NCBI GenBank assembly: GCA_949296775.1
Contig: CASFQA010000001.1
Location: 372,001-436,000, forward strand
Length of the DNA: 64,000 nt
Direction of reading: 5' to 3'
Source of the DNA: an uncultured bacterium
GTDB lineage: Bacteria > Bacillota_I > Bacilli_A > RFN20 > CAG-826
Part shown: positions 3,387 to 21,684 of the stretch, one piece after another
Layout: each line of letters opens with the position of its first letter
How positions within the stretch are numbered: the first letter of the stretch is position 1
Program-made: the position numbers and the translations under genes
The notes under the pieces: generated by a model
The model's input: only the letters and a program-made list of their open reading frames with translations
The model's database searches: none
What the model was told of the DNA's origin: nothing

Positions 3387-4421
3387 TTATTTCGCGTAAA
3401 ACGGCGACAGGAAGCGGTAGTCGTCGGCGTAGAAACGGCGGATATCGTCGATCCCGTAACGGAGCATGGCGACCCGCTCGACCCCGACCCCGAAGGCGAA
3501 TCCGCTCCAAAGCTCGGGGTCATAGCCGCACATCTTGAGCACCTTAGGATTGACCATCCCGGCCCCCAGGATCTCGATCCAGCCCGATCCTTTGCACATC
3601 GAGCAGCCCTTCCCTTGGCAGGCGAAGCAGGAGACGTCGACCTCGACGCTTGGCTCGGTGAAGGGGAAATAGGAGGAACGGAGGCGGATCTCCCGCTTCT
3701 CGCCGAACATTTTCCTGGCGAAGAGCTCCAAAGTCGCCTTCAGGTTGCCTAAGGAGATGTTTTTGTCGACCACCAGCCCCTCGATTTGGGCGAACTGATG
3801 GGAATGGGTCATGTCGTCATCGTCCCGGCGGTAGGTTTTCCCCGGGCTGATCATCTTGATCGGGGTCAGCCCCTTCCTTTCGAGCATGACGTGGGCTTGG
3901 GCGGCCGAGGTTTGGGTGCGGAGCAGTTTCCCTCCCTTCAGATAGAAGGTATCCTGCATGTCCCGGGCCGGATGGTCGGCCGGGACGTTAAGCAATTCGA
4001 AGTTATACAAATCGGTCTCGACGTCGCGGCCGGAGACGACCTCATACCCCATGTCGAGGAAGATGTCGGTCACCTCGTCGATGATGAGCCGGAAGGGGTT
4101 CTGATGGCCGATGGCCGTCCCTCGCCCTGGGAGGGAAAGATCGATTCGCTCGGCTTCGAGCTTGGCTATAAGCGCGTTCTCCTCCATCGCTTTCTTTTTC
4201 GCCTCGTATTCCGCGCTCAACCGGTTTTTGGCCTCGTTGACCGCTTTGCCGAAGGCGGCTTTCCCCTCGTTAGGAATCGACCGCATCTGCCCCATCAAGG
4301 CGGCGATCGCCCCCTTTTTGGCGAGATAGGCGGCGTAAAACCGCTCCAACTCGGTTGGGGTTTGGGCTTTTTCCAGCGCCTCCAACCCCTCGGCTAAGGT
4401 CTTCTCGATTGCAGTGTCCAT
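3387..4421 (-). CDS. pheS: Phenylalanine--tRNA ligase alpha subunit
   Basis: Catalytic subunit of phenylalanyl-tRNA synthetase, 344 residues, full length. An N-terminal coiled-coil (about 1-85) that grips the tRNA is followed by the class II catalytic core. Visible motifs include HPARDMQDTFYL, RTQTSAAQ, GWIEILGAGM and the C-terminal GFAFGVGVERVAMLRYG (motif 3 region). A cysteine cluster CFACQGKGCSMC precedes motif 3. The start has a strong AAGGAG ribosome site. A T-box leader lies directly upstream, so expression should rise when tRNA-Phe is uncharged. First gene of pheS-pheT-DUF177-like. Confidence 0.98.
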   Translation of the reverse strand: MDTAIEKTLAEGLEALEKAQTPTELERFYAAYLAKKGAIAALMGQMRSIPNEGKAAFGKAVNEAKNRLSAEYEAKKKAMEENALIAKLEAERIDLSLPGRGTAIGHQNPFRLIIDEVTDIFLDMGYEVVSGRDVETDLYNFELLNVPADHPARDMQDTFYLKGGKLLRTQTSAAQAHVMLERKGLTPIKMISPGKTYRRDDDDMTHSHQFAQIEGLVVDKNISLGNLKATLELFARKMFGEKREIRLRSSYFPFTEPSVEVDVSCFACQGKGCSMCKGSGWIEILGAGMVNPKVLKMCGYDPELWSGFAFGVGVERVAMLRYGIDDIRRFYADDYRFLSPFYAK

Positions 4422-4647
4422 CTTCGCTCCTTAAATAAAAATAGGCCCCGTGGGAACGGATTTACCGCGGTGCCATCCCGATTCGATCCCCCATTGGGGA
4501 CCGCTCTCTTTTCCCGTTAACGCCGGGCGCGGGCGGGTCTCCCCGCCACCCTCGGAGGCGAATTCGCGGAACTCCCCTCGGATGGTCTCACTCTCCACCC
4601 GTCCCTGTAAGGGAAGTCGCCCCGTTACTACTCCTCGTCTTTAGGCG
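4422..4647 (-). promoter_or_regulatory. T-box riboswitch leader of pheST
   Basis: On the minus strand the leader opens with AAAGACGAGGAGTAGTAAC (4624-4642), the usual start of stem I. The near-canonical T-box GGGATGGCACCGCGG lies at about 4465-4479, just before pheS. In between are GC-rich complementary segments, including a CCCC..GGGG hairpin at about 4488-4505. T-box RNAs bind uncharged tRNA through a specifier codon and the tRNA acceptor end. Here two UUC triplets lie on the 3' side of stem I, but I cannot choose the specifier without folding. Confidence 0.9.
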
Positions 4648-4652
4648 AGGCC

Positions 4653-4658
4653 ATTCTA
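4653..4658 (-). promoter_or_regulatory. Probable -10 box for the pheST T-box transcript
   Basis: The minus strand reads TAGAAT about 7 bases before the start of the T-box leader, matching TATAAT at five of six positions. The -35 region is weak. The position is right for a transcript starting near 4646. It lies just past the end of the upstream gene. Confidence 0.4.
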
Positions 4659-4673
4659 TCCTTCGCCGCCGTT

Positions 4674-5345
4674 TTATGGAAGAGCCAACTCCCGGGAGAA
4701 GGCGGAAAGGAAGGGGAATTTGCTCAAGGCGTCGAATCGGGGGAAGCCGCGGATGAACAGCCCGAGCTCCGCGATAAGCCGGTTGGGGCAACCTAGATAA
4801 GCCTCCTCCTTCCCCTTTATCAAAGAAGGGGAACGGGTGGCGAGGAAAGCCAGCCTATTGAGCCGGTCGAGCAGACGGAGGAAATGGAGCTCAAGCTCCG
4901 CCTCCTTTTTGGCCATCGGCCCGCGAACGAAAAGCGAATCCGGGAGGGAACGGGCCAAATCCGAGAGGTAATCGGCGTAAAAGGGATAGTTGGGGTTAAG
5001 ATAAAGGATCGATTGGTAACGGTCATTGAGACGATGGAATATCGGGGCGAACGGCTCGATGATCTCCTTCTCCAACGCCAACTCCCTCGTCAATTCGTCC
5101 AGTTCCTTTAAGTCGGATGAAAGCCGTTGCCTCCGTAAGTAGGCGGCTAAAAAGGCGAGGAGAAAGGCAGCGAAGAGCAAGGACAAGGACAAAAACGAGA
5201 TGGTCAGATCCTTGGGGTCGGCCGCTTGGGAATAGGAAAAGGCGGCGTAAACAAGCAAAGACGAATAAAGCGCGATCATCAATATGGCCAAGACGACGCT
5301 CGGCCAGCGCGGATAGGCTTTTAAGGACAGAGGTGTTCGGTTCAT
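4674..5345 (-). CDS. Hypothetical membrane protein
   Basis: 223 residues counted from the ATG at 5345, which has GGGGGAA close upstream; the frame is open 15 codons further. Two hydrophobic segments lie at about 17-38 and 50-70 of this form, followed by a basic RRQR stretch and a long helical cytosolic part with many Leu, Glu and Arg residues. That is a coiled-coil-like layout. No family is recognised. The gene stands between a lipoprotein gene and the pheST T-box. Its last bases overlap the region of the pheST promoter. Confidence 0.65.
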   Translation of the reverse strand: MNRTPLSLKAYPRWPSVVLAILMIALYSSLLVYAAFSYSQAADPKDLTISFLSLSLLFAAFLLAFLAAYLRRQRLSSDLKELDELTRELALEKEIIEPFAPIFHRLNDRYQSILYLNPNYPFYADYLSDLARSLPDSLFVRGPMAKKEAELELHFLRLLDRLNRLAFLATRSPSLIKGKEEAYLGCPNRLIAELGLFIRGFPRFDALSKFPFLSAFSRELALP

Positions 5346-5393
5346 GTTTCCCCCACTTAAATATGTAGGCGGGGAAAAGCGAATCGTCACCTT

Positions 5394-16093: not shown

Positions 16094-16122
16094 AAGACCG
16101 CCGCAAAAAGCGGTCTTTTTTT
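16094..16122 (+). terminator. Rho-independent terminator of fba
   Basis: An eight-base stem AAGACCGC/GCGGTCTT with an eight-base loop is followed by a run of T. It lies 16 bases after the fba stop and marks the left edge of the accessory island. Confidence 0.9.
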
Positions 16123-16124
16123 CA

Positions 16125-16536
16125 TTACATTCCCCGCAGATCAAATATGAGCGGCTTCCCTAAGCGCACCGCTTCCTTGGCTATTCTTTCGGCAAGAAAA
16201 AGGGTATGGGTAAGTTCGACCCCGCTTGGTAAGCGAATCGTATTCCGCATCGATCAGTTGAAGCAACGAAGACACCCTATCGGCAGGCATCATGGTTTCC
16301 AACCCGGCGCAAAAGGCGAAACCAAGCTGATGCAAGCAGCGCCTGTCCAATCCATACTCGAAAAGGGTGTTCAACTAGGTTGGGGTTAACAGCTACGGGC
16401 GAAAAGGCTGGATCGGGTTTTGAAACAAGGAAACGCGCAGGTGAGGTTCCTCCCCTAGAGGAATCAAGAGCATAAACTCCTTTTCCCAAATTCTTGGATC
16501 TCCCCAGTCGAATAGCCTCAAATTATCGTTATCCAT
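16125..16536 (-). pseudogene. Decayed second copy of cassette gene C
   Basis: The frame from the ATG at 16536 reads MDNDNLRLFDWGDP and then LLIPLGEEPHLRVSL, QNPIQPF. Two in-frame TAG stops follow, and a frameshift near the end restores PLIFDLRGM before TAA at 16125-16127. The same features occur in the intact gene at 18571-18960 (IISPLEEKEFPEVSL, NPRQPF, NIYFDFRDLL). It lies last in the decayed A-B-C row, as C does in the intact row. Function is unknown. Confidence 0.6.
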
Positions 16537-16553
16537 ATTTAGCGGCCCTTTGT

Positions 16554-16962
16554 TTATAAGTCAAATAATAGTTTTTGATTTAGCCGTTTGGCTAATCCCA
16601 CTGCTTTGCGAATCATTATCGTGGTTTCCTTAAGAAGCCCGTCGCTCCTTGCGATCCACAGCTCCAGATCCTCTTCATACTCAGTCAACCGTTCGGGCTC
16701 GACAAAAGGATTTTCCGTATGTTCTAAAGGACAATCGAATTGTTCAAAGGAAATATGCCATAGTTCCGAACATTCCAGCAGTTCCGCCTGCTGAATGCTG
16801 AGAAAACTACGAAATAATCACAATACGGGAGACCGTTCTCATCCTCGGCGGGACTATCAGGGGCATAGCCACCACCGAAAACCCGTTGCGCCGCCAGTCG
16901 ACATTACGGCCGCCTTTCTGAACATCAAACCAATCATCGAAACAAACTTTGTCATCCGTCAT
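16554..16962 (-). pseudogene. Decayed second copy of cassette gene B
   Basis: An ATG at 16962 gives MTDDKVCFDDW and WRRNGFSVV. The frame is then lost and continues in other frames with IQQAELLEC, EQFDCPL and RSDGLLKETTIMIRKAVGLA, ending in TAA at 16554-16556. The intact gene at 19006-19371 has matching elements in the same order: WYKGFSV, EEFDCFV and KRDGMLKDAYLLLAKAIRVA. At least two frameshifts are needed. It is flanked by decayed A and C copies in the same order as in the intact set. Confidence 0.55.
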
Positions 16963-17010
16963 ATTGTCTTCTCATCTGTCAATCATCTTTGTTGCGCCGT
17001 ATGCCCCGTT

Positions 17011-17420
17011 TCATACAATCGTCGAAAGAATCGGAAACCACCCCATCTCCGTTTTCTTCAAAATTCGGAAATGGGAGCCATTTGATTGTTCGTAGGAAGG
17101 ATTGCGCGGAACGGGCTTTAAATAAGAGTAATAATAACGACCGTTTCGATCAACTAAGTGAAAACTCCCGCCCTCAAAATCGGCCACGACATCCAGCCAG
17201 GAACAACAGATTTGAAATATATTTTCCTTTTAGTAATCCGCATAGGGAGATTAAGAAAATCGGGATGGACAAAATCGTTAATATTGAAGGATGGCCATGC
17301 TTCGCCTAATTTCTCCTTTTCAACCCGCCCTTTGTTCCATGCTACCATCAAATCTATGTTATGTTTCGCTTCAATCAATCGAATGAAGACGTTTTCCGAA
17401 TAACAATCTTTAGCTGCCAT
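17011..17420 (-). pseudogene. Decayed second copy of cassette gene A
   Basis: From the ATG at 17420 the frame reads MAAKDCYSENV and INDFVHPDF, closely matching gene A (MAAKEYYSENV, INRIVDPNF). A frameshift near 17190 breaks it. In the shifted frame VVADFEGGSFHLVDRNG and HFRILKKTEM match the intact C-terminus VVADIAGGYLCLTDDG and HYRILKKEEM. The shifted frame ends at 17011. The start overlaps the end of the upstream orphan gene, so it was once part of the D-E-A-B-C operon. Confidence 0.72.
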
Positions 17421-17808
17421 CATATTCTTCCTTCCGAACCATCTCTGAATGAGTTACTTTTTTGGCCTTTCGTTTGGCTTTTAGCTCAATGGGCTTTGGG
17501 CTATTACTGGCATTTCCGAATCCACTAAACAAGCAAAGGCCTTTTCCGCGCTCTCGACACAAACCCGCCAATCCCTTGATTAAGCAATCCTTGAAATCAG
17601 CCGCCGCCTGACCACGCAAACGAAGGTCATCGATAAGGAAAATACCGCGTTTAGAATCGGCGATCACGTTTTCGACAAAATGACCATCGTTCACTAGAAT
17701 ATCCGACAATTTGTAAGGGGAATAGCCAAATGGGGGTTGACCGCGTTGAAGCGGAATATCTAGTTGGTACTTAAGCAGCAAATCGTGCTGAAAACTATAT
17801 TTATTCAT
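17410..17808 (-). CDS. Cassette gene E, unknown protein
   Basis: 132 residues with no recognised family. The N-terminal part reads NKYSFQHDLLLKYQLDIP. The middle contains GIFLIDDLRLRGQAAADF, a hydrophobic strand ending in two aspartates, and then GKGLCLFSGFGN. The C-terminus is basic (KAKRKAKK) and could bind nucleic acid, which is inference. The ATG overlaps the stop of the DUF4417 gene by eight bases, and the end overlaps the start of decayed gene A. It is intact, unlike its three downstream neighbours, so selection may still hold it together with gene D. Confidence 0.6.
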   Translation of the reverse strand: MNKYSFQHDLLLKYQLDIPLQRGQPPFGYSPYKLSDILVNDGHFVENVIADSKRGIFLIDDLRLRGQAAADFKDCLIKGLAGLCRERGKGLCLFSGFGNASNSPKPIELKAKRKAKKVTHSEMVRKEEYDGS

Positions 17809-18484
17809 ATACGCGACCTCTCGCCAAGGAATTGAAATCTGGATATTGCTTCACTTCGACACCAGCGTTTTGCCAGGCCGCCAACTCGTCAGGATGCATT
17901 TTCCCATATGACAAAACGAGTTTGGGGTCAGAGAAGGTTAAATAAACTGCTCTGATCATATTTTCGATTTCCCTGGATTCGCGGGAATTCCGTAAGGTGC
18001 CAACCGTGCCGACGCTAGGGATAGGCGCATGGCGATAAGGAAAGAAATACGGGACGTTCTGGAAGCCGCCCCACCTGGTCGGAGCGGCGAATTTAATCCC
18101 GTTAACCCCAAAGAACGCGTTGCATAGGGCGTTTAAACGCAGGTGAAACAATTGATGGGATCGGTCGGCAAAACGGGTGACCGTGAAATCAAACGGCATG
18201 ACTCCCAGGAACTTCTTATAGGTAGACAAATCCTTTTCCAAGTTACGAGCCCGAGTATAAAGTTTGTCATCGTTTGAGTAAAAGCAGATCGCCGACCGGC
18301 CGGCCGGGAATCTTCTTCGCCCGGAGAAAGGAACGATATGCTCGGGAGCAGTGGGAAGAAACCACTCTTCCTGCATTATCGGGAAAAAAGCCGAGTTAAA
18401 TCCAACCCCACGATTGCGAAGGTACGATTCCAGATAATCGGCTATCTCGATGTCGATTCGACAATCAATCAGTGAAGTTTTCAT
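17801..18484 (-). CDS. DUF4417-like protein (cassette gene D)
   Basis: 227 residues. The pattern fits DUF4417, a family known mainly from phages and mobile elements with no established function. A strand AICFYSNDDKLYTRA resembles the family's FFIDDY segment. It is followed by GVMPFDFTVTRFADRS, GIKFAAPTRWGGFQN and SVGTVGTLRNSRES, with a late PKLVLSYGKM. The start has GAGGGGG upstream. It opens the D-E-(A2-B2-C2) operon, and its upstream region carries a 28-bp element shared with the gene A operon. The family call is by motif order only. Confidence 0.65.
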   Translation of the reverse strand: MKTSLIDCRIDIEIADYLESYLRNRGVGFNSAFFPIMQEEWFLPTAPEHIVPFSGRRRFPAGRSAICFYSNDDKLYTRARNLEKDLSTYKKFLGVMPFDFTVTRFADRSHQLFHLRLNALCNAFFGVNGIKFAAPTRWGGFQNVPYFFPYRHAPIPSVGTVGTLRNSRESREIENMIRAVYLTFSDPKLVLSYGKMHPDELAAWQNAGVEVKQYPDFNSLARGRVYE

Positions 18485-18501
18485 AAAATGTGACCCCCTC
18501 G

Positions 18502-18529
18502 GTTTACTTTGTATGCGTTTTTAGTGTAC
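18502..18529 (-). promoter_or_regulatory. Shared 28-bp upstream element, copy 1
   Basis: On the + strand it begins GTTTACTT and ends TTTTTAGTGTAC. It matches the element at 19786-19813 at 23 of 28 positions. It lies 18 bases before the ATG of gene D, just outside its ribosome site. The placement suggests an operator or promoter for a common regulator, for which the nearby XRE protein is the natural candidate (inference). Confidence 0.5.
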
Positions 18530-18570
18530 ATACGGGTAGAATTCTCCTTTGTCATCGTTCCATCGCGAAT

Positions 18571-18960
18571 TCAGGCTAATAGATCGCGGAAATCGAAATA
18601 TATATTCCGCTTGTTGGCAAAAGCCTCCTGAACAAAGTCATCGAAGAAACAGGCAAAACTTGCAAGACTTCCTCCGCAGTCGCGATATTTAGACAAGACA
18701 TTCAGCATTTCGGCGACATTGCTGGCAAGGACGGTCGATAATTCCTTCTCCTTCAAGCCATTATCCGTCAATCGCGCTATATCCCGACCAATTGGTAACG
18801 ACGATAACTCACGGACTAAACTTGGGGAGAGATATAAATAAAGAAATGGCTGACGAGGATTGCTTGATAGCGAGACTTCTGGGAATTCCTTCTCCTCAAG
18901 CGGGGATATTATTATGTATCCGTCATTCAAGCGTGGGTATTTATTACTAGCGTTGTTCAT
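18571..18960 (-). CDS. Cassette gene C, unknown protein (intact copy)
   Basis: 129 residues with no recognised family. It is a mixed strand/helix protein: a strand pair YIIISPLEEKEFPEVSLS, a segment QPFLYLYLSPSLVREL, a helical middle, and an ending RNIYFDFRDLLA. No membrane segments are present. The Shine-Dalgarno TTGGAGG is clear. It is the last gene of the intact A1-B1-C1 row, 45 bases after B. A decayed relative lies at 16125-16536 in the same relative position. Confidence 0.65.
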   Translation of the reverse strand: MNNASNKYPRLNDGYIIISPLEEKEFPEVSLSSNPRQPFLYLYLSPSLVRELSSLPIGRDIARLTDNGLKEKELSTVLASNVAEMLNVLSKYRDCGGSLASFACFFDDFVQEAFANKRNIYFDFRDLLA

Positions 18961-19005
18961 TGACGTTCCTCCAAGAAAAATAACTCTGTTTTCTTAAACT
19001 AATCA

Positions 19006-19371
19006 TTACATCATAATCATCAGGTCCCGACGTTCCCGGATTGCTACCCTGATGGCTTTAGCCAAAAGCAAATATGCGTCTTTCAACATTCCATCACGTT
19101 TGTCGATTCGGCCGGTTACTTCACGAAGCAGTTGAGGCAATAGACAAAACTCAACCGAATCGAAATCGAATTCGCAAACAAAGCAATCGAATTCTTCGCG
19201 AAGAAAATCCTCGGCATCGTCCAATAAGGCTTTGGCTTGCTCTGACGGAAGTCGGATTGAATAAGATAATTCCGTCGTTTCTTCCTCACCCTTACTCAGA
19301 TTGACGGAAAACCCCTTGTACCAATGATTAAGTTTGTAATCAATGGATTGGAACTTGGTATTTTCGATCAT
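19006..19371 (-). CDS. Cassette gene B, unknown protein (intact copy)
   Basis: 121 residues, acidic in the middle (FDCFVCEFDFDSVEFC) with a helical C-terminal half (KRDGMLKDAYLLLAKAIRVAIRERR). No family is recognised. The ATG overlaps the stop of gene A (ATGA), so the two are translationally coupled and probably made in fixed ratio. A decayed relative with the same C-terminal helix pattern lies at 16554-16962. The fixed pairing with A suggests that the products interact; this is inference. Confidence 0.65.
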   Translation of the reverse strand: MIENTKFQSIDYKLNHWYKGFSVNLSKGEEETTELSYSIRLPSEQAKALLDDAEDFLREEFDCFVCEFDFDSVEFCLLPQLLREVTGRIDKRDGMLKDAYLLLAKAIRVAIRERRDLMIMM

Positions 19372-19754
19372 GCTTCCATTTCCTCCTTCTTTAAGATTCG
19401 ATAATGAGCCAAACGACGAAGTTTTTTCTTACTGACCTCGTTAATCAATTTCCCTTCAATGGAATAAAAATGCTTCCCGTCGTCGGTCAAACACAAATAG
19501 CCCCCGGCAATGTCGGCCACGACCGTGATTCCCGGATAAATCGAGGGGAAAAACATCTTGCGAGCATTTATGCGTACCGATGAAAGATCAAAATTAGGAT
19601 CGACGATGCGATTGATATTCACGGTCGCCCATTGCCCGCTGTATCTCTCTTTCTCTTTTCGTGCCGCTTCCCATGCATGCTTTAGGTACGCGCTGGAAGC
19701 CAATTCGGCCAAACGAGCCTGAACGTTTTCCGAATAATATTCTTTAGCTGCCAT
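19368..19754 (-). CDS. Cassette gene A, unknown protein (intact copy)
   Basis: 128 residues. The N-terminal helix MAAKEYYSENVQARLAEL is followed by a basic helix with HAWEAARKEKERY. A strand-rich core then contains VNINRIVDPNF, RINARKMFFPSIYPG and VVADIAGGYLCLTDDG, and the end HYRILKKEEMEA is basic. I do not recognise the family. The GGAGG ribosome site is strong. It heads the A1-B1-C1 row and has the shared 28-bp element 32 bases before its start. The frameshifted relative at 17011-17420 keeps the same N- and C-terminal motifs. Confidence 0.68.
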   Translation of the reverse strand: MAAKEYYSENVQARLAELASSAYLKHAWEAARKEKERYSGQWATVNINRIVDPNFDLSSVRINARKMFFPSIYPGITVVADIAGGYLCLTDDGKHFYSIEGKLINEVSKKKLRRLAHYRILKKEEMEA

Positions 19755-19785
19755 GCCTTGACCTCCAAATCGCGCTGAACGACGT

Positions 19786-19813
19786 GTTTACTTCGTTCGC
19801 ATTTTTAGCGTAC
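19786..19813 (-). promoter_or_regulatory. Shared 28-bp upstream element, copy 2
   Basis: The + strand starts GTTTACTT and ends ATTTTTAGCGTAC, with five mismatches to the copy at 18502-18529. It lies upstream of gene A, between it and the ImmA/IrrE gene. Both copies face their operons in the same orientation. Confidence 0.5.
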
Positions 19814-19845
19814 ACCAATCAAACAAACATGGCAAACATTTTTCC

Positions 19846-20523
19846 CTATTTTTTCTCCAAATAGCGTTTTGCCCTTTTTCTAAGAGTGGATATTAGGTCT
19901 TCTTTAGTCTTGTCATCTATCAATTCAACTTCTTGCAAGCGATAGATAACCGCTTCTTTGCTTGCAACGAAAAACTTCGATAGTCGCCTTGTAACTATAG
20001 TCAGTGATTTAATGTCGTCCGAAGTTTTGAACTCATTGAACTTTTGGACAATGAATGGCTCTGGCAAAAGCAAATACGTGGCATATTTATTGGCCTGATG
20101 TTCTGCCATATCCAAACCTTTGTTAAGCTTGACTTTGATCGCTAACCCATTTTTCCCCGGATAATCCAAATCGACTTGAAAATGCCATGTCTCGTGGAGA
20201 ATGGTGAAATTCACAACGGGCGGGTAATTGTTATGGCAAGCTTGTTCGTCGACGAAGATAACTTTGCCAAGATTCTTTTCCTTCGCCGTAAGTCCATAGA
20301 TGCGCCCGTCGTCAGATAATTTTTTGAAAAACACTTCTTTGCCGGTTACGAAGCGGACGAATTCGTCAACCGGCAAAGGCTTAGGCTTTTGGAAATAGTT
20401 GGGATCAAATGAGCGCAGCTGATTATAGGCGAATTCCTCGATTTCCTTGTCCTTGACGAATAGCTGGCCATTCTTACCACGCTTAGACCGGATATAGTTC
20501 AGATCAATTTTCCGGGACGTCAT
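19846..20523 (-). CDS. ImmA/IrrE family metallopeptidase
   Basis: 225 residues. The zinc motif HETWH lies in FTILHETWHFQVD, and the third-ligand region EHQANKYATYLLLPEPF matches the ExxAnxFAaxLLmP pattern of ImmA/IrrE peptidases. Such enzymes cleave a partner XRE repressor in ICEBs1-type elements and phages, releasing repressed genes. An XRE gene overlaps it upstream by 20 bases, the standard arrangement. Its likely targets are the two nearby operons carrying the shared element (inference). The last 60 residues are helical and very basic. Confidence 0.88.
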   Translation of the reverse strand: MTSRKIDLNYIRSKRGKNGQLFVKDKEIEEFAYNQLRSFDPNYFQKPKPLPVDEFVRFVTGKEVFFKKLSDDGRIYGLTAKEKNLGKVIFVDEQACHNNYPPVVNFTILHETWHFQVDLDYPGKNGLAIKVKLNKGLDMAEHQANKYATYLLLPEPFIVQKFNEFKTSDDIKSLTIVTRRLSKFFVASKEAVIYRLQEVELIDDKTKEDLISTLRKRAKRYLEKK

Positions 20524-20890
20524 TTAACTTATCAACGACCTCGACCCAAAAATCGTCATCGACCTTTTTCTCCGAGGCGGTCCTGAGTGCGACCTGCGCA
20601 AAACGAGAATTTTTAAGATATTCGACCAAATCACGAGAAACGCGGTTTTTCTGCAAAGCCGAAAGCTCCGACATTTTTTTGAAATCAGCAATCTCGGCCT
20701 CGTTCATTTTGTAGGCGGAGGCGAAAGAAGCGGACAAATCCCCTTTGCGGCTGTTCAAAGGGAAAGCCCGGTCACCCGATTCCAAATCACAAAGAAAGGT
20801 CGGCGAAACCCCAATTAAGGAGGCGGCATGACGAATGGTCAAGCCCAATGATTGCCTCTTCTTTTGAATAAAGTTTCCGAATTCGTTCAT
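20504..20890 (-). CDS. XRE-family transcriptional regulator
   Basis: 128 residues from the ATG at 20890, which has AGGGAAC upstream; the frame is open 16 codons further. The N-terminal helix-turn-helix reads FIQKKRQSLGLTIRHAASLIGVSPTFLCDLESG, as in Cro/CI-type repressors. A helical C-terminal part (about 60-128) should mediate dimerisation or contact the ImmA-like peptidase encoded next. Together they resemble the ImmR/ImmA switch of integrative elements. A GTAC..GTATAC sequence between its start and the remnant upstream may be its own operator. Confidence 0.85.
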   Translation of the reverse strand: MNEFGNFIQKKRQSLGLTIRHAASLIGVSPTFLCDLESGDRAFPLNSRKGDLSASFASAYKMNEAEIADFKKMSELSALQKNRVSRDLVEYLKNSRFAQVALRTASEKKVDDDFWVEVVDKLNDVPEN

Positions 20891-20902
20891 CTTGTTCCCT
20901 CT

Positions 20903-20921
20903 GTACGCAAATAAAGTATAC
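20903..20921. promoter_or_regulatory. Candidate operator of the XRE gene
   Basis: GTACGCAAATAAAGTATAC is a near-palindrome with GTAC and GTATAC ends, 12 bases before the XRE ATG. Its ends resemble those of the 28-bp elements (GTAC.C ... AAGTAAAC), but the core is shorter. The resemblance could be chance. Confidence 0.3.
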
Positions 20922-20934
20922 GCGCGAAAAACGA

Positions 20935-21560
20935 TCATTTTAAAGTAAAATAACCCGTAGTTGGTTCTCGACTTATCAGGTCTAATAAGATGGATATAGC
21001 ACTTTCCTTAGCCTCGACGAAAATAAAGGTATTAGTTAAATGAGCAGCGTGAACTCCAGTCCCCCAAAAAGATGAGGTGCTGAATAGTCCTTTGCCGAAT
21101 AATCGGTCCCGGATTTGACTCCAACTGGCCTCGTTGACTCCTGATCTTTCGATGATATCCCCCACTGCTGATGGACCATTGCTTTCAAAGGACTTCAAGG
21201 ATTTTCTCTAAAGACGACGCCCAGTAAAAAGCTTTGCGTAAACATATACGGCCATCGTCGAATTAAAGGAAGAAAGGACTTTCGGGGTTAGAAGCAGGTT
21301 TTTCCTCGAAAATATTAGAATTCGGAACTTGATAGGCATAAGCGAAGCCTTTCGTCATCAAAGCCAACTTCGCGGCTTGATTAAAAAGAATGTCGAAAAC
21401 CGATTGATAGGAAGTGAGGGGATAACCAACGGACCTAAATTGTTACGTTGATTCGGCGAAAAGAAGTTCGATTTGCCGGAGCCCCGGAGGCCAGGATTAA
21501 ATTAAGACGACGGTTCGTTTGCTACTCTGGAGACGGGCTTTTAACCATATCGAATCGGCC
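20935..21560 (-). pseudogene. Remnant of an AAA-type ATP-binding protein
   Basis: A small open frame at 20935-21198 encodes an 87-residue piece with ERSGVNEASWSQIRDRLFGKGL, the winged-helix-like C-terminal segment seen in standalone AAA ATPases. Upstream, other frames hold GLRGSGKSNF, a Walker A-like string at about 21470-21500, and LTSYQSVFDILFNQAAKLALM. The pieces lie in the right order but in different frames with stops between them. This is consistent with a decayed ATPase once forming part of the element. The extent of the remnant is approximate. Confidence 0.45.
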
Positions 21561-21625
21561 AAAGGGCAAATTTTTTATAGACTATCAAAAGCACCTCAAG
21601 ACTATTAAACCAGTTGAAAACCGGC

Positions 21626-21684
21626 TTTGTCATACATTTTTAAATTTGTCATTATTTGTCATTATTTGTCATAAGATGTCATAA
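21626..21684. repeat. Array of TTTGTCATTA repeats with 10-bp period
   Basis: Four consecutive 10-base units run from 21645 to 21684: TTTGTCATTA, TTTGTCATTA, TTTGTCATAA, GATGTCATAA. An isolated TTTGTCATA lies at 21626. Ten-base spacing places each unit on the same face of the helix. The array marks the right edge of the accessory island, just before the terminator of the next gene. Confidence 0.75.

What the first reader, a model, noticed from the sequence alone, without database searches (positions are those of the whole stretch)
16125..19754. Tandem duplication of an unrecognised three-gene cassette, one copy intact and one decayed
Genes A (19368-19754), B (19006-19371) and C (18571-18960) recur in the same order and orientation as remnants at 17011-17420, 16554-16962 and 16125-16536. 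Shared short motifs (MAAKxxYSENV, HxRILKKxEM, KGFSV-like, DGxLKxxxxxxxKAxxxA, QPF, IxFDxR) support each pair. None of the three families is recognised. The conserved order, the A/B translational overlap and the co-duplication indicate a functional unit. This is the best candidate in the window for an undescribed system.
Basis: partly seen in the sequence, partly recalled or inferred. Interest (0 to 1): 0.85.

Follow-up and report, generated by a model that had tools for sequence, protein, structure and literature searches.

The report
DUF4417-linked toxin–immunity island with decayed copy
The three "unknown" genes belong to a small mobile island that most likely carries a bacterial toxin, its antidotes, a repressor–protease switch and a partner protein (DUF4417); the same partner precedes many different toxins in other bacteria and phages, a link I could not find described.

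Summary
A has a frameshifted 45%-identical copy. B' and C' are fainter, but each beats 1000 shuffles and 500 window tiles, in the right place and order. No library names A, B or C. The interpretation needs changing: the unit is not A-B-C alone. In four other genomes A sits immediately after a DUF4417 gene (D) and is followed by B; the window has an intact D (17801-18484) between the two copies. Across 50 DUF4417 loci, 47 carry an adjacent small ORF, often with a short N-terminal tag (MKGxSPLF, MxTKGxSxxYG, MGGRG). Behind the tag lie exchangeable bodies, including the Pfam toxins Ntox50, Ntox28, Gln_amidase, Ntox24 and C80-like, followed by immunity-type genes. In mycobacterial, Gordonia and Streptococcus phages DUF4417 likewise precedes MGGRG-tagged proteins. 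A occupies this toxin slot; its confident model matches no known fold. A 23-bp operator-like dyad occurs three times in the 1.52-Mb genome, before the XRE repressor, A and D. The 5.5-kb island is low in GC and absent, apart from gene scars, from the closest relatives. Most likely: a polymorphic toxin–immunity module with a DUF4417 partner under XRE–ImmA control, duplicated and reciprocally degraded. Toxicity, tag recognition and delivery are inferred, not shown.

The parts
16122..21659 (.). Island between fbaA and a CBS-domain gene
   Evidence: GC about 0.44 against 0.56-0.60 in flanks; flanks are contiguous within 190 bp in relative G070
20504..20890 (-). XRE-type repressor (internal ATG, MNEFGNF..., taken as start)
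   Evidence: HTH_31 1.5e-4, couple_hipB 5e-6
19846..20523 (-). ImmA/IrrE-type metallopeptidase (HETWH)
   Evidence: Peptidase_M78 4e-4, phrog_2439 3e-13, capP 5e-10
20899..20921 (-). Operator-like dyad, XRE promoter
   Evidence: One of exactly 3 sites in the 1.52-Mb genome
19791..19813 (-). Operator-like dyad before A
18507..18529 (-). Operator-like dyad before D
19368..19754 (-). A: candidate toxin in the DUF4417-adjacent slot; tag-like N-terminus MAAKEYYSENV
   Evidence: Homologues directly after DUF4417 in L004, L005, L006, L020; model pLDDT 91, no fold match
19006..19371 (-). B: candidate immunity protein
   Evidence: Positional partner of A in L004, L005, L006, L020, L011
18571..18960 (-). 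C: candidate second immunity protein
   Evidence: C-terminal scar in relative G070 at the same site
17801..18484 (-). D: DUF4417 protein, intact
   Evidence: PF14386 2.9e-6, just below cut-off; family profile; model pLDDT 91
17410..17808 (-). E: small gene, weakly similar to the third gene of L005/L006; overlaps D by 8 nt
   Evidence: 28% over 63 aa, E 0.03; alignment A10
17044..17420 (-). A': remnant of A, one frameshift
16554..16962 (-). B': remnant of B (detected match 16566-16745)
16125..16536 (-). C': remnant of C (detected match 16342-16476; C-terminal part near 16128-16178)

Best explanation
The locus is a small mobile-type island carrying a polymorphic toxin-immunity module of a DUF4417-partnered type. 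A is the toxin-type effector; B, and probably C and E, are immunity-type proteins; D (DUF4417) is the conserved partner that probably recognises the short N-terminal tag of A. The XRE repressor holds three transcription units off (its own, A-B-C and D-E...), and the ImmA/IrrE protease relieves repression on a stress or intruder signal. An ancestral promoter-D-A-B-C unit duplicated; copy 1 lost D and copy 2 lost A', B' and C', leaving one set between them. Shown: gene order, homologies, the slot relationship, tag/D-clade association, operator-like sites, island limits. Inferred: toxicity of A, immunity by B and C, tag recognition by D, ImmA triggering, and delivery (open: phage-type carriage, since the same cassette occurs in phages, or action inside the carrier cell).
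For: A directly follows DUF4417 in L004/L005/L006/L020. 47 of 50 DUF4417 loci have an adjacent downstream ORF. Slot-1 proteins match Ntox50 6e-12, Ntox28 4e-9, Gln_amidase 1e-8, and weakly Ntox24 and C80; slot-2 proteins match CdiI_3 4e-18, Cys_rich_CPCC, DUF4926. One tag (MKG..LF) heads six groups of bodies without detectable similarity to each other. Tag type follows the D tree: 7 changes against a shuffled mean of 25, minimum 19. Mycobacteriophage, Gordonia and Streptococcus phage DUF4417 genes precede MGGRG proteins, among them Gln_amidase and ADP-ribosyltransferase toxins. Operator-like dyad at three places only. Island and scars.
Against: A itself matches no toxin family or fold, so its toxicity rests on position. 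B and C have no family match; their mutual homology is inconclusive. Tags could be conserved recombination joints or linked inheritance rather than recognition signals. No delivery apparatus was identified in the island.
Confidence: 0.68

Rival explanations
1. Intracellular abortive-infection or addiction module: XRE-ImmA senses phage or damage and releases A to stop the carrier cell, with B/C as antitoxins; no export.
For: XRE-ImmA and shared operator-like sites; ImmA resembles capP; no delivery genes seen in the island.
Against: Toxin-then-immunity order and exchangeable toxin bodies are typical of polymorphic or phage toxins; phage versions are present without XRE-ImmA annotated immediately beside them.
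Confidence: 0.3
2. Phage-type cargo: A is loaded into virions of a resident or helper phage through D and its tag, and injected.
For: Phage DUF4417-MGGRG cassettes lie near terminase/portal genes; two slot-1 proteins match a portal-protein PHROG.
Against: No phage structural genes seen in the island; A's tag is not MGGRG; the mycobacteriophage cassette sits at the genome's left end, which may be expressed in lysogens instead.
Confidence: 0.3
3. The D-A-B genes are non-toxic phage or mobile-element accessory genes; the toxin resemblance is a feature of other cassettes only.
For: No direct match of A or B to any family.
Against: A stands in the same slot where proteins with Pfam toxin domains stand.
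Confidence: 0.15
4. A-B-C and D-E-A'-B'-C' were acquired separately at an insertion hotspot rather than duplicated in place.
For: Deep divergence; DUF4417 modules sit beside the same CBS gene in another genus (L117) and beside folD and rpsI in two genomes each.
Against: A is nearer to A' (45%) and L004 (44%) than to the L005/L006/L020 forms (about 30%).
Confidence: 0.4

Closest known systems
Polymorphic toxin-immunity systems (Zhang et al. 2012, PMC3482391), including polyimmunity loci
   Same: Exchangeable toxin bodies, adjacent small immunity-type genes, tandem arrays, decay
   Different: No long trafficking domain: only a short N-terminal tag and a separate DUF4417 partner
MuF phage polymorphic toxins (Jamet et al. 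2017, PMC5576092)
   Same: Phage-borne toxin domains followed by a small gene; some shared toxin families
   Different: No MuF domain; tag plus DUF4417 instead; chromosomal XRE-ImmA islands
ParB-DUF4417 phage fusions (PMC12704722)
   Same: Same DUF4417 domain; L047 (357 aa) looks like such a fusion
   Different: That paper lists DUF4417 as of unknown function and does not contain the word toxin; D here has no ParB part
XRE-ImmA (ICEBs1-type) and CapH/CapP switches
   Same: Repressor next to a metallopeptidase, presumed derepression by cleavage
   Different: Controls a DUF4417-toxin cassette; no CBASS genes identified here

Membership tests
Polymorphic toxin-immunity system | Known toxin domain at the effector position | tested here: inconclusive
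   Met for several slot-1 homologues; A itself has no match
Polymorphic toxin-immunity system | Constant N-terminal part with exchangeable C-terminal bodies | tested here: met
   Met for the wider DUF4417-linked set: MKG..LF tag before six unrelated body groups; not testable within A's own clade, where all bodies are one family
Polymorphic toxin-immunity system | Adjacent immunity gene neutralising the toxin | tested here: inconclusive
   A small following gene is usual; immunity-type families in some; neutralisation needs an experiment
MuF toxins | MuF domain | tested here: not met
   None found in slot-1 proteins
DUF4417 (PF14386) | Profile match above curated cut-off | tested here: inconclusive
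   D scores 27.3 bits, cut-off 28.9; iterated profile joins it
CBASS CapH/CapP | Cyclase and Cap effector beside CapH/CapP | tested here: not met
   Peptidase and repressor resemble capP/capH, but no other island gene scanned matched PADLOC
XRE-ImmA switch | XRE repressor plus HExxH peptidase and repeated operator | tested here: met
   binding and cleavage not tested

The most novel reading that the evidence does not exclude
DUF4417 proteins are dedicated adaptors that read a short N-terminal tag and load exchangeable toxins for phage-type delivery, a delivery class distinct from MuF; chromosomal islands such as this one carry it under XRE-ImmA control, and A is a toxin of a new fold.
Probability: 0.3. 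Interest if true: 0.82.

Novelty: new variant of a known kind. Interest (0 to 1): 0.62.

Why it matters
DUF4417 is found in hundreds of phage records and many bacterial genomes, with no stated function in the paper on it that I could read. The association found here gives it a concrete, testable role: partner of short-tagged toxins. It also adds an unrecognised candidate toxin family (A) with its likely antidotes, and puts a context on the VIP2-like toxins of cluster A actinobacteriophages, whose role a 2020 paper called unclear (PMC7302621).

Tried and rejected
Phage and plasmid tblastn with A, and viral-contig scans, found no relative of A; weak phage hits to the L006 form (E 0.5-0.9) were dismissed. 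A profile over 392 genomes of the phylum found A in no further genome. PDB and BFVD fold searches of A, and PDB for D, gave no significant match; D looks like a beta/alpha barrel but is not assigned. B-C, B-E and C-E profile comparisons were inconclusive or negative. No Rfam match, no tRNA in the window, no repeats of 9 bp or more shared by the island ends.

Full report
1. Observation. A, B and C are open reading frames at the stated positions. A' matches A at 45% over 75 aa and then, after a frameshift, 38% over 52 aa; in the whole genome it is the only second copy, E 2e-13. B' and C' are weaker (28% over 60 aa, 33% over 45 aa), but each is the best non-self match in the 64-kb window, and neither score was reached in 1000 dinucleotide shuffles or 500 tiles from elsewhere in the window.

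2. What lies between and around. On the minus strand the order is XRE repressor, ImmA/IrrE peptidase, A, B, C, D (DUF4417), E, A', B', C'. The named families are XRE and M78 and DUF4417 for D, just under its cut-off. GC falls to about 0.44 from about 16200 to 21600 against 0.56-0.60 outside. In the close relative G070 the flanks (88% identical) are 190 bp apart, and those 190 bp hold a 42-aa scar of C's C-terminus; in G076 a C'-like end survives beside other cargo; G048 has only a short gap. So the site once held such genes in relatives and has lost them.

3. Relatives. In 279 genomes of the order only three besides the host carry A above threshold, plus a divergent one (L020, found through DUF4417) and a fragment in G088. 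In L004, L005, L006 and L020 A starts within or at the end of a DUF4417 gene and is followed by a B-type gene. In L007 (the same contig as L004) the order is XRE, ImmA-type peptidase, DUF4417, A, B, with an integrase-like stretch at the contig end, read by eye. G088 keeps an intact B behind a broken A.

4. The general rule. I read 50 DUF4417 loci from the order and class. 47 have an adjacent downstream ORF, typically overlapping by a few to a few dozen nt; at least 22 of 44 with enough upstream sequence have an HExxH gene before them, and in L054/L117 peptidase and DUF4417 appear as one 407-aa protein. Many of the downstream proteins begin with a short tag; one tag, MKG..LF, stands before six groups of bodies that do not match each other. 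Pfam recognises Ntox50, Ntox28, Gln_amidase and, weakly, Ntox24 and C80 in this slot and CdiI_3, CPCC and DUF4926 in the next. Tag classes, which I assigned by eye, fall along the DUF4417 tree: 7 changes against a shuffled mean of 25. The A clade is one such class (M..K..Y[ST].N). Linked inheritance explains part of this; that one tag outlives body replacement is the part that suggests function or a recombination joint.

5. Phages. In mycobacteriophages Centaur, Bugsy, Cookiedough, Luchador and Finemlucis, Gordonia phage Remus and Streptococcus phage Javan377 the gene after DUF4417 begins MGGRG; Roseburia phage Jekyll has FGGRG, a Christensenellales phage MGTRG and Streptococcus phage IPP52 an internal GGGRG. 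Pfam finds Gln_amidase (8e-14, 6e-12) and ADP-ribosyltransferase (4e-22, 4e-21) domains in four of them; the following gene in Centaur is annotated as an immunity protein. The library held three papers that mention DUF4417; I read one, which gives its function as unknown and does not contain the word toxin. No preprints and few subscription papers are held, so absence from the literature is not proven.

6. Regulation. A 23-bp imperfect dyad, derived from these three sites, occurs exactly three times in the 1.52-Mb genome, on the coding strand directly before XRE (internal start), A and D; none is expected by chance. Because the pattern was built from the sites, the test shows restriction to the island rather than discovery of an independent motif. 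It ties A and D into one presumed XRE regulon although they are no longer adjacent.

7. How it probably works. XRE represses all three units; ImmA, on a signal not known here, relieves it; D and A are made together; B, C and perhaps E protect the producer. Delivery is open: intracellular suicide and phage-type carriage are both compatible. The duplicated unit may have included promoter and D, with D lost from copy 1 and A', B', C' decayed in copy 2; separate acquisition at a hotspot is nearly as likely, since DUF4417 modules lie beside the same CBS gene in another genus and beside folD and rpsI in two genomes each.

8. Limits. A's toxicity is inferred from its slot; its model is confident (pLDDT 91) but matches nothing in PDB or BFVD. 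C and E are assigned mainly by position. The host genomes are draft assemblies, so single frameshifts could be errors, although A', B' and C' together carry several.

Noticed in passing
window 20935-21659: Fragmentary frames upstream of XRE (87-aa TTG ORF and shorter pieces), possibly the remains of a further gene; no confident family match.
   Followed up: no
L076 (G000:C2:366000-376000), 4254-5347: Second DUF4417 locus in the same genome: truncated DUF4417, an MASRGSV-tagged small protein and a small following gene, beside what look like HipB/HipA-type genes and near rpsI.
   Followed up: partly
L117, 4505-6871: XRE, a 407-aa protein joining the peptidase and DUF4417 regions, MGGRGSF protein and small following gene directly downstream of a CBS gene, with glgP nearby, as in the window but in another genus.
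   Followed up: partly
L113, 8377-10022: In G076 the fbaA-CBS gap holds an unrelated 447-aa gene plus a C'-like remnant: the site seems to be a turnover hotspot.
   Followed up: partly
A4 members: Six slot-1 proteins match phrog_9479 (unknown function, E 3e-46) and two match a portal-protein PHROG, hinting at a virion link.
   Followed up: no
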